Below are positions 1,743 through 5,618 of a stretch of DNA of 44,987 nucleotides, piece after piece. The notes beneath the pieces were generated by a model, which worked only from the letters and a program-made list of their open reading frames with translations, was not told the origin of the DNA and did no database searches. The translations under genes and the position numbers were made by a program. Each line of letters begins with the position of its first letter. The first letter of the stretch is position 1. This stretch comes from Clostridia bacterium (GTDB taxonomy: Bacteria; Bacillota; Clostridia; Oscillospirales; SIG627): positions 1 through 44,987 of the forward strand of contig JAFSID010000031.1 in NCBI GenBank assembly GCA_017439965.1, read 5' to 3'.

Positions 1743-2648
1743 AATTTTTATGCTCATTTGCTTTTTCAAGCGGTCGATTATAAGCTCACGGAAGCTCTGT
1801 GGCTCCACCACCTCAACGAAAGGACCGAAGCGGAGAATACGGATGACCATCTCGGTTTCATCGTCAACGCTGTAATTGACACGCACGGTATAATCACCGT
1901 TGTCAAGCCTTTCTGCGTACTTCTCAAAGTGCGCGAAGTGAAGCATACATCTTTCGAGAGCGTTGCGCTCGTCACGGATACGGAGAGTGACCGAGCAGGT
2001 CTCGGGAGGAGATATTTTTTCACGGATGGGCGGAGAACCCTTTACCGCAGTTACCCTTAAAACTCTGTTGAGATTAAAGGTGGTAAGACTGCGTGAGCCA
2101 CGGGCAATAAGTCGGAATTTATCGTCCTTCTCGGAATACTCAAGCCTTTCGGGTAAAACGCAGAATACGACCTCGTCACCGTGACGGCTCAGATAGGTTA
2201 TACGAAGAGGAGTATTTTCACGAAGTCCCTTGAGTATATTTCTGAAGCGTATTATATATCCCTCGTCCTCAAAATCGTCTCCGTCAAGATACTTATCGTA
2301 CACAAGATAATCCTCCGACGTGAAGAGAGGCTCAACCTCCTCAAGACCCTCTATCTCAATTCCGAAAAGCTTTACGCGAGGATCAAGCATTACAGCCTTA
2401 AGCCAACGCTTCTGCAAAAGAGTTAACGGAAGAGTGGGCTTATTTTTAATCGGGGTTTCAAGGCTTGGTGTGATAATCTGCCATTTACCGCTCCTGAGTG
2501 ACGGGAGCACCTCTAAAACGCTTTCGGAAAAAGCCTTGTCACACACAGCCTCACGAAGCCTTTTCTCGTCACGCTCACCGCTGATTACAAGCGTTATTAT
2601 TTCGGCAACGGCGTTATAATAGGCAGAATAAAGCTCGCTGAAAATCAT
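1740..2648 (-). CDS. WYL-domain protein (second of a pair)
   Basis: A 302-residue WYL-family protein. The WYL-type beta core is around 135-215 (RITYLSRHGDEVVFCVLPERLEYSEKD, then FRLIARG and FNLNRVLRVT), and the C-terminal WCX-like extension ends with FGPFVEVVEPQSFRELI. WYL domains in bacterial regulators bind nucleic acid or small ligands, and many WYL proteins answer DNA damage or control defence genes. No N-terminal winged helix is evident, unlike standard members. The ATG overlaps the stop of the upstream WYL gene by four bases (ATGA), so the two are translationally coupled and probably work together, as in PafBC-like pairs. The target is unknown. Confidence 0.8.
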   Translation of the reverse strand: MIFSELYSAYYNAVAEIITLVISGERDEKRLREAVCDKAFSESVLEVLPSLRSGKWQIITPSLETPIKNKPTLPLTLLQKRWLKAVMLDPRVKLFGIEIEGLEEVEPLFTSEDYLVYDKYLDGDDFEDEGYIIRFRNILKGLRENTPLRITYLSRHGDEVVFCVLPERLEYSEKDDKFRLIARGSRSLTTFNLNRVLRVTAVKGSPPIREKISPPETCSVTLRIRDERNALERCMLHFAHFEKYAERLDNGDYTVRVNYSVDDETEMVIRILRFGPFVEVVEPQSFRELIIDRLKKQMSIKI

Positions 2649-3889
2649 TCCTCATCACCTCCCAAGCCGTAAAGACGATAGGTTTCACGAAGGTCATCGC
2701 GGAAGCGGTTTTCAAGCGTTCTGTTTGAAAACTTGATTGAGGTTATACGGCAGACGAAGGAGCGTATCCACGGCAAAAGCTCTCCCGTGTCAAAGACGGT
2801 TGCAGAAAAGCGGTAGTGATTATCATCCACCTTTTCCACAGTGCCAAGTCTCTTTTCACGCTCAAGGCGGTTGACGATATACTCCTCGCCGTCACCTACG
2901 AAAACGGTAAACTCCACCGTTTCAAGATACCTATCGGACTTGGAGCAATTGACTCCCCACATATAGCGACGGGATTTTTCAAGAAGTTCTCGGTAGTTAT
3001 CAAAGCTCGGACATTTATCCCCTATCTCAACCTCGGCAAGATAGTCCACTCTCCAGCTCTTTATACGTCCGTTATTCAAATCAAAGGCAAGAAGGTGCTG
3101 TCTGCCCGTCTGCACGCTGATAAACACCCTTAAGGGCACTATATAAATCTTACACGGAAGCTCTGAGTGACGGGAGTAATTCACGGCGGTGACGGTGCGT
3201 TTCGTGTGCATAGCCTCAAAGAGACGCACAAGAATATCGCTGTCAAGGGCTGAGGTTATATAATGGTGCTTAAAAGACACCTTATCGGCGTTGTCGGGAT
3301 ATTTATCGAGCAAAAACGAGCCTACGGCACCGCAGGGCATAACCTCCGAAAAGAAGTGTATTCCGTCACAGCTTTCGGGAAGGAGAGTCTCGGGTGAGCG
3401 GAAGTAGAGATTGCTCTTGCCCGACCTTTCCGTGCAGATAATTCCCTCGTTGATATACTCTCGAAGCTTTTTTCTCACCGTAGACTCGTCAAAGAGCATC
3501 GGGCTTGAAAAGGCGGAAAGATACGCATCAAGTCCGTCGAGTATCTCCGGGAGAGTCATTTTAATCTCGGGTGACGACAAGAGGTCAAACAGTATAAAAT
3601 GCAGAGTGATATCCTTATCGGTAAAGCTTTTTGTCTTAAGCCCCTTATAGAGAGGATTGTGGGCAGAGACACGGCTGTCGATGGATATAAAGGCGTTTTT
3701 GCCGTCACGGGTACGGATAAAGCCCATATGGTCACCGAGCCAGCTTTCAATTCGCCGTCTCTCGTCATCGTAGGAGCGGGCGCTTTTCGAGTCGTACTCC
3801 GACCGACTCTTGAAGCCGTAAACGTAAAACTCACGCATATACGAGCGCACCTTTTCAAAATTCTTTACAAGCTCACGGTATTCCGACAA
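2645..3889 (-). CDS. WYL-domain transcriptional regulator (first of a pair)
   Basis: A 414-residue protein with a helical N-terminus (about 1-170) that includes a possible winged-helix segment (LPEILDGLDAYL...DESTVRKKLREYINEGII, about 112-152) and a central WYL-like domain (about 225-290, TVTAVNYSRHSELPCKIYIVPLRVFI, HLLAFDLNNGRIKSWRVDYL). A WCX-like C-terminal region follows. The start is TTG at 3889, chosen because AGGAGG lies seven bases upstream; the next Met (residue 18) has no such site. It is co-transcribed with the second WYL gene. DNA-binding regulator is the likely role; the signal and targets are not visible. Confidence 0.78.
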   Translation of the reverse strand: MSEYRELVKNFEKVRSYMREFYVYGFKSRSEYDSKSARSYDDERRRIESWLGDHMGFIRTRDGKNAFISIDSRVSAHNPLYKGLKTKSFTDKDITLHFILFDLLSSPEIKMTLPEILDGLDAYLSAFSSPMLFDESTVRKKLREYINEGIICTERSGKSNLYFRSPETLLPESCDGIHFFSEVMPCGAVGSFLLDKYPDNADKVSFKHHYITSALDSDILVRLFEAMHTKRTVTAVNYSRHSELPCKIYIVPLRVFISVQTGRQHLLAFDLNNGRIKSWRVDYLAEVEIGDKCPSFDNYRELLEKSRRYMWGVNCSKSDRYLETVEFTVFVGDGEEYIVNRLEREKRLGTVEKVDDNHYRFSATVFDTGELLPWIRSFVCRITSIKFSNRTLENRFRDDLRETYRLYGLGGDEE

Positions 3890-3919: not shown

Positions 3920-3925
3920 ATTATA
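3920..3925 (-). promoter_or_regulatory. candidate -10 box for WYL operon
   Basis: A perfect TATAAT on the minus strand lies 31 bases before the TTG start. No good -35 hexamer is seen 17 bases upstream, so an extra activator or an upstream transcript is possible. Confidence 0.4.
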
Positions 3926-3940
3926 AAATCAGTGAACAAT

Positions 3941-4030
3941 TCAGATGCCACTTGTTTTTATGCACTCAACATAAAGAATACCAAAATCATCATTATAACG
4001 AAAATAGGAATAGGCATTTATTAAACTCAT
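3941..4030 (-). CDS. possible 29-aa small protein upstream of WYL genes
   Basis: A 29-codon ORF begins with ATG preceded by AAGGTGG at a five-base spacing, which is a good ribosome site for so short a frame. The product starts MSLINAYSYFRYNDD and ends ECIKTSGI; it matches nothing I know. In the next frame 3958-4017 encodes a 19-residue, almost wholly hydrophobic peptide (MPIPIFVIMMILVFFMLSA) without its own clear ribosome site. The frames overlap, so at most one is likely real. It sits between the hairpin array and the WYL pair. It could be a leader peptide, small membrane peptide or chance. Confidence 0.35.
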   Translation of the reverse strand: MSLINAYSYFRYNDDFGILYVECIKTSGI

Positions 4031-4068: not shown

Positions 4069-4278
4069 TCGATATGCAATCTTCGATTGCTCGATATTTT
4101 TACTTCGTAAAATCGATATGTTTTTCGCATTCGCTTAAAACTCGATATGATATAAATCTCGTTGCCGTAAGGCAACATATCGAGTTCGTCAGAACATATC
4201 AAGTCATTTATGACATATCGAAAATCTCGAAAGAGATTTATATCGCTGATTTCATCTTCGATGAAATCATTATATCAC
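4069..4278. repeat. hairpin-ladder array (eight hairpins with 7-nt linkers)
   Basis: Eight perfect or near-perfect hairpins abut 7-nt linkers. Left half: linker TCGATAT at 4069, 4091, 4113 and 4142, with hairpins at 4076-4090, 4098-4112 and 4120-4141 (the third degenerate). Apex: GTTGCC/GGCAAC with GTAA loop at 4161-4176. Right half: linkers ATATCGA or close variants at 4177, 4196, 4215 and 4240, with hairpins at 4184-4195, 4203-4214, 4222-4239 (GAAA loop) and 4247-4269 (10-bp stem). Left and right linkers are reverse complements in nested order, so the whole can fold into stacked four-way junctions. It contains no gene, lies after a terminator, and its function is unknown. Confidence 0.85.
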
Positions 4279-4298
4279 ATTGTTTTTCTTTTTTCAAC

Positions 4299-4331: not shown

Positions 4332-5618
4332 TTATTTGTGAATGACAATTCGTATACTGAACACGCCGTCCTCTATCTTATAGTCAACCACCGCGTTATG
4401 CTTCTCGCAAAAGGCAACGGTCGAGCGTACTCCTATTCCGTGACCTACCTCACGGTTGACGGGAGCGCCTCTGGAATCAATCTCAACCTCACCCTCAAAG
4501 GGATTGCTTATAGAAAAAATAAGCTGAGGAGACTGAATGCATTTACACTTGATATATCTCTTCTCCTCGGGAAGATTCTCGCAGGCAATAATTGCGTTTT
4601 CAAGCGCGTTTGCGATAACTACCGAAAGCTCCTCGGGAGGAACGGGCAGAGTCTGTTCAAGAGAGAGCGAATGCTCAACGCGTATTCCCTTCTCAGTAGC
4701 AAGACCGATATAATAGCTGAACACCGCATCAAGAACGGTATTGACACAGTAGCGCTCGTGAATGGGAGTCTCAAGAGCCTCCTCTGTCACGTTGGCAATA
4801 TACTCACGGGCACTTGACAAGTCGTCCTTTTGAAGCATCATATCAATGGTCTGAAGTCGGTGACGGAGATTATGCCTTTCAAAGCGTACTCTTTTATCTG
4901 CCTCGGTCATATGTGAGATGCGTCTTTGCATATGGTTTGACTGAAGTATCCACAGCTCCTCTCGGAATCTTGCTTCGTTAAGCTTCAACTGATTAAACAA
5001 AAGCAAAAAGATGTTTATGTACATAAGACTCATAAGGAAAATAAAAATCAAAAGAGTCGGCATATCCTCAGGTCTTTCGGTTATTGCCGTCGGAAAAGCA
5101 TTCAGATAAATAAAGACGGTATAAAAAACAATAGCCACAAGGGTAAAGAGCCCCCAACCGACTGTAACGCTTTCCTGGATTTCAAAATACACACGCCTGT
5201 ATTTTTTGACAGATGCGATTTCAATAATCAAAAAGCCGAAAACTCTTATCAAAAACATCAAAACGTTAGTATTGGGAGTAATATAGTAATTCAAAACTGA
5301 CGAAAGAATAATTAAAGCGGCTGAAACCGTATCAACAAGACAGAAGGTAAAGAAAAAGCGAAAATCACGAAGACTTGAAATAATATAAAAGAATATAAAG
5401 GTCGGCAGCACAAGAGTGAGCAGCATAATCTTGCCGTATACGCCAGCACCGTAGACGGTAAGAATTATCATATTTGCCGCAATTATGGGCAAAATAAAAA
5501 TGCAGGAAAGAAGCACCGTTTTTTTAACGGGATACTTAGACCTGAAGAAAACGAGAAAAATTACGGCAGTGTGTATAAGAGACCAATACGCAGAGCTGAG
5601 TCTTAAAATTTCACTCAC
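4332..5618 (-). CDS. GHKL sensor histidine kinase (AgrC-like)
   Basis: A 428-residue membrane kinase. Residues 1-210 contain about six hydrophobic segments; the cytoplasmic part has the dimerisation/phosphoacceptor motif ERHNLRHRL (candidate His249) and a GHKL ATPase domain with N-box (NALENAIIAC) and G-box (GHGIGVRSTV). The truncated ATP-lid form is typical of the HPK10/AgrC group, which senses extracellular peptides in Firmicutes. Its ATG overlaps the stop of the response regulator gene by four bases. No AgrB/AgrD genes adjoin it, so the ligand is unknown. Confidence 0.88.
   Translation of the reverse strand: MSEILRLSSAYWSLIHTAVIFLVFFRSKYPVKKTVLLSCIFILPIIAANMIILTVYGAGVYGKIMLLTLVLPTFIFFYIISSLRDFRFFFTFCLVDTVSAALIILSSVLNYYITPNTNVLMFLIRVFGFLIIEIASVKKYRRVYFEIQESVTVGWGLFTLVAIVFYTVFIYLNAFPTAITERPEDMPTLLIFIFLMSLMYINIFLLLFNQLKLNEARFREELWILQSNHMQRRISHMTEADKRVRFERHNLRHRLQTIDMMLQKDDLSSAREYIANVTEEALETPIHERYCVNTVLDAVFSYYIGLATEKGIRVEHSLSLEQTLPVPPEELSVVIANALENAIIACENLPEEKRYIKCKCIQSPQLIFSISNPFEGEVEIDSRGAPVNREVGHGIGVRSTVAFCEKHNAVVDYKIEDGVFSIRIVIHK

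What the first reader, a model, noticed from the sequence alone, without database searches (positions are those of the whole stretch)
4069..4278. Hairpin ladder able to form consecutive four-way junctions
Read base by base, 4069-4246 is a gapless alternation of 7-nt linkers and hairpins. Four linkers TCGATAT on the left and four ATATCGA-type linkers on the right are reverse complements in nested order around an apex hairpin (4161-4176). Nested pairing gives three stacked perfect four-way junctions, each with one left arm and one right arm, ending in the apex. The arm sequences all differ while the linkers are conserved, which suggests selection for architecture rather than for sequence. Loops are stable types (TTCG, GAAA, GTAA). 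An eighth arm and further ATATCAC follow outside, as if units are added modularly. No known repeat family I can name looks like this.
Basis: partly seen in the sequence, partly recalled or inferred. Interest (0 to 1): 0.92.

Follow-up and report, generated by a model that had tools for sequence, protein, structure and literature searches.

The report
Hairpin-ladder repeat matched to pentamer protein
This intergenic "ladder" of 7-letter repeats and hairpins is one copy of a scattered, apparently mobile bacterial element whose gene-carrying relatives encode a small ring-forming protein (PF05635), with each protein lineage having its own 7-letter repeat, and the same protein-plus-heptamer pairing recurs across several bacterial phyla.

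Summary
Window 4069-4246 holds four left linkers (TCGATAT), four right linkers (ATATCGA-type) and three hairpin arms per side around an apex; DNA folding gives the nested ladder (0/200 shuffles fold as well). One correction: a 12-nt centre (4149-4160) separates the last left linker from the apex and pairs with arm b4.

The ladder is not unique. Among Clostridia I parsed 22 elements with the same 4+4 linkers and 3+3 arms. Arms covary (94-100% paired, against 57-73% with swapped partners for six of seven arm positions), and copies lie at unrelated sites.

The key result is a partner protein. PF05635 genes (four-helix-bundle "23S rRNA IVP", Avd-like pentamer) sit beside arrays of a 7-nt repeat. 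The repeat differs between IVP lineages and matches their tree (24 changes, the minimum; 0/200 shuffles). All eight ATATCGA-type IVPs found sit at ATATCGA ladders. In Gammaproteobacteria, cyanobacteria and Bacteroidota the heptamers are mostly contiguous.

Best reading: the window copy is an IVP-less member of an IVP-heptamer mobile element family. IVP rings probably read heptamers on one strand, with hairpins looped out. Binding and transposition are inferred, not shown.

The parts
4069..4148 (-). Left half-module, in its own sense on the - strand: four linkers (4069-4075, 4091-4097, 4113-4119, 4142-4148) and arms a1 4076-4090, a2 4098-4112, a3 4120-4141
   Evidence: Sequence; same plan in 22 ladders with covarying arms
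4149..4160 (.). Centre segment GATATAAATCTC, able to pair with 4233-4244 (3' half of b4 plus linker), alternative to the ladder
   Evidence: Used in the RNA MFE; covaries with b4 across 18 distinct pairs, 98.4% vs 86.6% shuffled, 0/1000
4161..4176 (+). Apex hairpin b1 GTTGCC-GTAA-GGCAAC
   Evidence: Sequence and folds; b1 outer stem 100% paired in 16 distinct versions
4177..4246 (+). Right half-module: linkers 4177-4183, 4196-4202, 4215-4221, 4240-4246 and arms b2 4184-4195, b3 4203-4214, b4 4222-4239
   Evidence: Sequence; covariation
4247..4278 (.). Outer hairpin b5 (4247-4269) and fifth linker-like ATATCAC (4272-4278), which overlaps the -10 box on the - strand
   Evidence: Sequence
4269..4297 (-). 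Promoter-like TTGAAA-N17-TATAAT reading into the ladder towards the WYL-like gene
   Evidence: 11/12 consensus matches with TG before the -10; kept in G003; comparable promoters at only 6 of 25 right halves
3920..3950 (-). Promoter-like 31-mer TGGCATCTGAATTGTTCACTGATTTTATAAT outside the left end, recurring beside other ladders
   Evidence: 6 places in 10 genomes; those in G000, G003, G083, G005 C5 and G016 C12 lie beside ladders
2645..3889 (-). Downstream gene, WYL-like regulator (neighbour, not part of the element)
   Evidence: PF13280 E 0.00029, just under its cut-off
4332..5618 (-). Upstream gene, GHKL sensor kinase (neighbour), ending in a terminator at 4327-4307
   Evidence: PF14501 E 1.6e-12; terminator scan

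Best explanation
The ladder is a non-autonomous (protein-less) copy of a mobile repeat element whose autonomous relatives carry one small gene for a PF05635 four-helix-bundle protein (IVP, structurally like DGR Avd). SHOWN: each element is two inverted half-modules of four 7-nt linkers separated by covarying hairpins; IVP genes sit directly beside such modules or between them; the linker 7-mer follows the IVP lineage across host families; copies are dispersed, and different element families occupy the same tRNA-Gln site in congeneric genomes. INFERRED: an IVP ring (solved relatives 2RLD and 2GSC have five chains) reads about four tandem copies of its own heptamer on ONE strand. Each hairpin abuts its linkers with no unpaired base, so a folded hairpin brings successive linkers together just as in the contiguous heptamer arrays that flank IVP genes in other phyla. 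This explains why arms may have any sequence but must be hairpins, and why the linker is 7 nt. The ladder (left linkers paired to right linkers) would be the closed state; IVP-bound halves, or the centre-b4 pairing, the open state. The element then spreads with IVP as the recognition factor; the strand-transfer enzyme is unknown. The window copy was probably placed by an ATATCGA-type IVP, which is found in the same genus (G001) but not in this assembly.
For: Covariation of arms and of centre with b4; fold z-scores of 22 ladders, median -4.85 RNA and -5.79 DNA. PF05635 genes adjoin ladders found by pattern alone (L092, L099, L105, L109, L285, L289, L295, L372). IVP tree against linker type: 24 changes = minimum, shuffled mean 39.2, 0/200; ATATCGA clade 100/100 across families and orders. 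Flanks of IVP genes against controls: a 7-mer with >=5 copies in 68% and 81% against 10%; direct-up/inverted-down enclosure 30% and 69% against 1%. Period-7 tandem repeats at 27/34 mostly gammaproteobacterial and 13/16 plasmid/phage IVP genes, against 5/90 controls. Dispersed near-copies with unrelated flanks in G005. Five or more linker families, and empty sites, at one tRNA-Gln locus. Fold match to 2RLD, 2GSC and Avd 4DWL/8UB7.
Against: No binding, transcription or transposition data. No target-site duplication or clean excision footprint was found. No ATATCGA-clade IVP in the (90.6% complete) own assembly: its three IVPs belong to other linker types. Linker labels on the tree were assigned by hand. 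Some IVP flanks show no clear array (L342, L344, L300). Adjacency of gene and repeats also fits autoregulation.
Confidence: 0.68

Rival explanations
1. Structured cis-regulatory leader RNA: the ladder is transcribed from the promoter at 4297-4269 as the 5' leader of the WYL-like regulator gene and switches between the ladder and the centre-b4 pairing to control expression.
For: Good promoter into the ladder, conserved alternative pairing, ribosome-binding sites after the left half in several loci.
Against: Only 6 of 25 right halves have such a promoter; at several IVP genes the promoter lies between ladder and gene; downstream genes are unrelated; loop types favour opposite strands in the two halves; no Rfam match.
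Confidence: 0.13
2. Ordinary MITE or REP-type element moved by a conventional transposase (IS200/Y1, RAYT) or by a reverse transcriptase; the IVP gene is only a passenger.
For: Small dispersed palindromic elements are usually moved in trans by transposases (established for MITEs and REPs).
Against: Y1_Tnp absent in 9 of 14 and RVT_1 absent in 11 of 14 ladder-bearing genomes; both absent in G000, G003, G005, G016, G038 and G039. No transposase gene recurs beside ladders while IVP does. Linker-IVP correspondence is not expected for a passenger.
Confidence: 0.09
3. The heptamers are double-stranded operators: IVP is a DNA-binding autoregulator and the arrays are its binding sites, copied around as a regulon.
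For: Repeats lie next to IVP promoters; protein-repeat co-specificity fits a repressor as well.
Against: Linker spacing varies from about 15 to 31 bp in hairpin types and is 7 bp in contiguous types, so helical phasing is not kept, while hairpin closure is; ladders without IVP are dispersed far from IVP genes; five-fold four-helix-bundle rings have no known dsDNA-reading motif.
Confidence: 0.07
4. Functionless by-product: palindromes inserted or grown by template switching in heptamer arrays, preserved by mutation bias.
For: Small palindromes embedded in heptamer arrays have been described in cyanobacteria (from memory).
Against: Fixed 4+4 plan, centre-b4 covariation and a conserved tandem G.A motif in arm a3 across linker families need selection.
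Confidence: 0.03

Closest known systems
23S rRNA intervening sequences (IVS) with an S23/IVP ORF (e.g. Coxiella burnetii, PMC4990558)
   Same: PF05635-type protein; complementary ends enclose the gene; regarded as a selfish element
   Different: IVSs sit in 23S rRNA and have one continuous stem; here intergenic, multi-copy, repeats of 7 nt with hairpin arms and a lineage-specific heptamer; many copies lack the gene
Heptamer repeats of Beggiatoaceae/cyanobacteria/Bacteroidetes (TAACTGA, PMC4679880) and Xanthomonas/Nostoc (GGGAATC, GGGGAYT; PMC4692102), cyanobacterial STRRs
   Same: 7-nt unit, dispersed, intergenic, few copies per array (mostly four in Xanthomonas), often convergent pairs
   Different: Published arrays are contiguous and no partner protein was proposed; the window element has hairpins between the units and a matching protein family
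REP/REPIN elements with RAYT
   Same: Dispersed palindromic repeats with a cognate protein found in some genomes
   Different: REPs have a conserved hairpin sequence and a Y1 transposase; here the hairpins vary, the linkers are conserved and the protein is a four-helix bundle
Diversity-generating retroelement RT-Avd-RNA complex (8UB7)
   Same: The protein fold is that of Avd, which works on structured RNA
   Different: No template/variable repeats, and no reverse transcriptase in most of these genomes
Small dispersed repeats of Nostoc (Elhai 2008, from memory, paper not held)
   Same: Hairpins embedded in tandem heptamers
   Different: SDRs are reported as conserved 21-27-nt sequences; here the arms nearly all differ and their number is fixed

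Membership tests
IVP-heptamer element (as defined here) | 7-nt linker of a type that is matched by a PF05635 lineage | tested here: met
   ATATCGA linkers; ATATCGA-type IVPs form one clade, with members in the same genus and family
IVP-heptamer element (as defined here) | Own IVP gene in the element (autonomous form) | tested here: not met
   Window copy has none; own assembly has three IVPs of other types
IVP-heptamer element (as defined here) | Movement dependent on IVP | not testable with these tools
   Needs an experiment
23S rRNA IVS | Inserted in a 23S rRNA helix | tested here: not met
   Lies between two protein genes
23S rRNA IVS | IVP/S23 ORF enclosed by complementary ends | tested here: not met
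   Not in the window copy; met in relatives L289, L306, L340
REP/RAYT | Y1 transposase (RAYT) in the genome | tested here: not met
   PF01797 absent in G000, G003 and G005
REP/RAYT | Conserved hairpin sequence between copies | tested here: not met
   16-20 distinct arm sequences per position among 22 ladders
Diversity-generating retroelement | Reverse transcriptase | tested here: not met
   PF00078 absent in G000 and in 11 of 14 ladder genomes
Contiguous heptamer array (STRR type) | Head-to-tail 7-nt units without spacers | tested here: not met
   Hairpins of 12-22 nt lie between the units
Known structured RNA (Rfam 15) | Match to a described family | tested here: not met
   No match at gathering score; only sub-threshold chance-type matches at E<=1

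The most novel reading that the evidence does not exclude
PF05635 proteins define a bacteria-wide class of mobile repeat elements in which a ring-forming protein reads a lineage-specific heptamer on a single strand and the element moves without any known transposase, reverse transcriptase or recombinase of its own. Heptamer arrays described piecemeal in cyanobacteria, Beggiatoa and Xanthomonas, and 23S rRNA IVSs, would be other faces of the same class.
Probability: 0.42. Interest if true: 0.95.

Novelty: categorically new. Interest (0 to 1): 0.88.

Why it matters
Dispersed heptamer repeats have been reported in cyanobacteria, Beggiatoaceae, Bacteroidetes and xanthomonads with no carrier or reader identified (PMC4679880: 'no mechanism is evident'; PMC4692102: generally not found with mobile elements), and PF05635/S23 proteins are selfish-element ORFs of unknown function. 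A repeat-to-protein code linking the two makes both questions directly testable with one small protein and synthetic oligonucleotides. The ladder itself would be a natural nucleic acid made of consecutive four-way junctions with freely varying arms.

Tried and rejected
Rfam at gathering score and at E<=1: nothing credible. DNA similarity of the ladder to phages: none. Target-site duplication from the 15-bp near-repeat 4053-4067/4280-4294: T-rich and not well kept in G003, so not claimed. Leader RNA as the general function: rejected as general because only 6 of 25 right halves have a promoter reading in. RAYT and RT as required helpers: rejected by absence in several ladder-bearing genomes, with the caveat that some assemblies are incomplete. 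Empty site via WYL homologues: those in G008, G012 and G023 are not syntenic, so uninformative; the tRNA-Gln site was informative instead. Linker covariation (TCGATAT/ATATCGA with GCGATAT/ATATCGC) is not used as proof of linker pairing, because homogenisation by a shared reader explains it equally. The contig-wide pattern scans contain many chance coding hits; only loci with hairpins between linkers were used. Literature searches for an IVP-heptamer link found none.

Full report
WHAT IS THERE. The described ladder is present. It has four TCGATAT linkers on the left, four ATATCGA-type linkers on the right, three hairpin arms per side and an apex hairpin, with an extra outer hairpin and a fifth linker-like ATATCAC beyond. 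The segment folds far better than dinucleotide shuffles as RNA (z -5.55) and as DNA (z -6.64), 0/200 each. The DNA-parameter optimum is the nested ladder; the RNA optimum instead pairs the centre with the 3' half of arm b4 plus its linker.

IT IS A FAMILY. A pattern of three linkers finds 7 overlapping hits in the own genome against 0 for the reversed control, and arrays in many relatives. Scans of public genome and virus contigs add further Clostridia MAGs and a few viral contigs. Parsed systematically, 22 elements share the plan of 4+4 linkers, 3+3 arms and a centre. Within each arm position most sequences are different (16-20 distinct of 22), yet the outer four base pairs are 94-100% paired. 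When 3' halves are dealt to other elements this falls to 57-73% (93% for the nearly invariant base of b4). The centre covaries with arm b4 (98.4% against 86.6%, 0/1000), for example GATATGAATTC with GAATTC..GAATTC-ATATC, and GATATAAATCCGC with AAATCCGC..GCGGATTT-ATATC. Twenty of 22 ladders have RNA z below -3 and 21 of 22 have DNA z below -3. Arm a3 carries a tandem G.A motif (GAGC-loop-GCGA), also seen by eye in ladders with other linkers.

LOOPS. Read in the ATATCGA sense of each half, 56 of 125 distinct arms end in cGNAg or cGNNAg loops. GNYA (20) outnumber GNRA (12), and none of the left-arm loops has this form on the + strand. The two halves therefore seem built for opposite strands. GNYA being as frequent as GNRA fits DNA loop rules (from memory) better than RNA GNRA rules, but this is only suggestive.

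MOBILITY. Solo and full copies recur within one genome at unrelated sites. In G005, copies of one solo family are 78-91% identical over 137-174 bp with different flanks. In L297, L293, L383 and L372 ladder modules are repeated around small genes, among them XRE-type regulators (by eye) and an IVP. At the 3' side of tRNA-Gln(CTG), G000 has an ACATCAC ladder with IVP, G003 an ATATCAC ladder with IVP, G005 an ATTTCAT ladder, G002 an ATATCAT ladder, G004 another family and G014 an ATATCAC ladder followed by an XRE-like gene; three other genomes (G011, G013, G025) have none. Linker types there were read by eye. Independent insertions are the simplest explanation.

THE PARTNER. Genes beside ladders include a recurrent 115-120-aa protein. 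It is PF05635/TIGR02436. Solved relatives are 2RLD and 2GSC (five chains each), and the predicted fold matches Avd of diversity-generating retroelements, 4DWL and 8UB7, TM about 0.8 (PMC10053308). In L289 the gene lies between two convergent half-modules. In L092, L099, L105, L109, L295 and L372 it follows on the left half, and in L285 (same genus as the window) it adjoins a right half of the window type. All eight ATATCGA-type IVPs found sit at ATATCGA ladders.

THE CODE. Looking the other way, from PF05635 genes in relatives (64 of 117 genomes), most have arrays of a 7-nt repeat, but of other sequences: ATATCAC, ACATCAC, ACTTCAC, AGCTAAA, ATTTCAT and others, often as a complete ladder in front of the gene. 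A maximum-likelihood tree of 57 IVPs needs only the minimum 24 changes of linker type (shuffled mean 39.2; 0/200). The six ATATCGA IVPs in it form a 100/100 clade although they come from different genera, families and orders. Linker labels were assigned by hand from the flanks, with register and strand reconciled by eye, before the tree was built; two small groups (ACATCAT, ATATCAT) are not monophyletic. The ATATCGA group does not depend on register choices.

GENERALITY. On plasmids of Nostoc, Planktothrix, Anabaena, Dolichospermum, Euhalothece, Bernardetia and Treponema, and on gut phage contigs, IVP genes are flanked by heptamers or ladders, mostly direct upstream and inverted downstream. 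In a draw of 369 genomes from the class of a Pseudomonas, 76 have PF05635. Of 34 flanks examined (mostly from that class, a few Bacteroidetes and a Desulfobacteraceae) 27 have period-7 tandem repeats against 5/90 control segments, with periods 6 and 8 at 10 and 3. A 7-mer with at least five copies occurs in 68% and 81% of IVP flank sets (relatives; plasmids and phages) and in 10% of control genes.

MECHANISM. Committed reading: an IVP ring binds about four to five tandem copies of its heptamer on one strand. A hairpin that abuts its linkers without unpaired bases lets linkers separated by 8-30 nt behave like contiguous heptamers. This single assumption explains the 7-nt unit, the free arm sequence with strict self-complementarity, the fixed number per half, the same orientation within a half, and the occurrence of hairpin-spaced and contiguous arrays in different IVP clades. 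Pairing of left with right linkers (ladder) hides the sites, and the centre-b4 pairing offers a second state. Shown: structure conservation, dispersal, protein-repeat correspondence. Inferred: binding, strandedness, ring wrapping, mobilisation in trans. Unknown: the enzyme that cuts and joins. Reverse transcriptases and Y1 transposases are both missing from several ladder-bearing genomes.

KNOWN RELATIVES. 23S rRNA IVSs encode the same protein family inside a stem of inverted repeats and are called selfish (PMC4990558). Heptamer repeats in Beggiatoa/cyanobacteria (PMC4679880) and Xanthomonas/Nostoc (PMC4692102; most arrays have four units, 70 convergent pairs in one strain) were reported without a partner. 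No paper in the searched library connects PF05635 with heptamers, but only openly licensed papers are held, so prior description cannot be excluded. I rate it categorically new because no described element family passes its membership tests; its parts (heptamers, IVP, small mobile repeats) are individually known.

THE WINDOW COPY. It lies between a GHKL sensor kinase gene and a WYL-like regulator gene, directly behind a good promoter (TTGAAA-17-TATAAT) whose -10 box overlaps an outer linker, and a second promoter-like 31-mer that recurs beside other ladders stands outside its left end. Transcription of this copy, and an effect on the WYL-like gene, are therefore possible but would be secondary. 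The orthologous site in G003 has the same ladder, with the mismatched linker ATATCAA as ATATCGA there.

Noticed in passing
L302, L307, L308, L313-L315, L317, L318, L320, L325-L327, L330, L332, L333, L341, L343, L344, L346, L348, L363: About 20 of 51 IVP loci have a tRNA gene close by: all five ACTTCAC elements lie downstream of a tRNA, while four contiguous-heptamer ones (L302, L308, L320, L333) lie just upstream of a tRNA-Leu. Possible insertion preference.
   Followed up: partly
L404 (G004:C32:30226-30488), L408, L409: The 3' end of tRNA-Gln (22 nt, exact in G004) is duplicated about 240 bp downstream, just before the ladder, as after integration of a tRNA-targeting element.
   Followed up: no
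L356 (Anabaena pANACY.01), L362 (Monoglobus plasmid 12), L357 and L361: IVP genes with their heptamers sit inside operons of other systems: between cas2 and cas1, between hsdS and hsdR, and between DUF1156 and Swt1/HEPN genes.
   Followed up: no
window 3920-3950 (-): 31-mer TGGCATCTRAATYGTTCACTGATTTTATAAT occurs only six times in ten genomes searched, at least five of them beside ladders; a promoter module that travels with the element?
   Followed up: partly
L009 (G000:C103), L376 (G000:C94), L287, L374, L375: Right-half-only copies with a distinct long arm ATATTTACTCGG..CCGAGTAAATAT recur in G000 and G003 behind a shared hairpin GAAAACCGC..GCGGTTTTC.
   Followed up: partly
window 3941-4030 (-): 29-codon ORF with a good ribosome-binding site (MSLINAYSYFRYNDDFGILYVECIKTSGI) between the ladder and the WYL-like gene, identical in G003 by eye.
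   Followed up: no
L383 (G005:C6), L297 (G031:C9), L409 (G014): XRE-like regulator genes sit between ladder modules or directly behind a ladder, like cassettes.
   Followed up: no
G445:C1 (genome reached through): Eleven weak PF05635 matches in a 1.5-Mb genome, ten of them full length with near-equal scores: a possible multi-copy family of its own.
   Followed up: no
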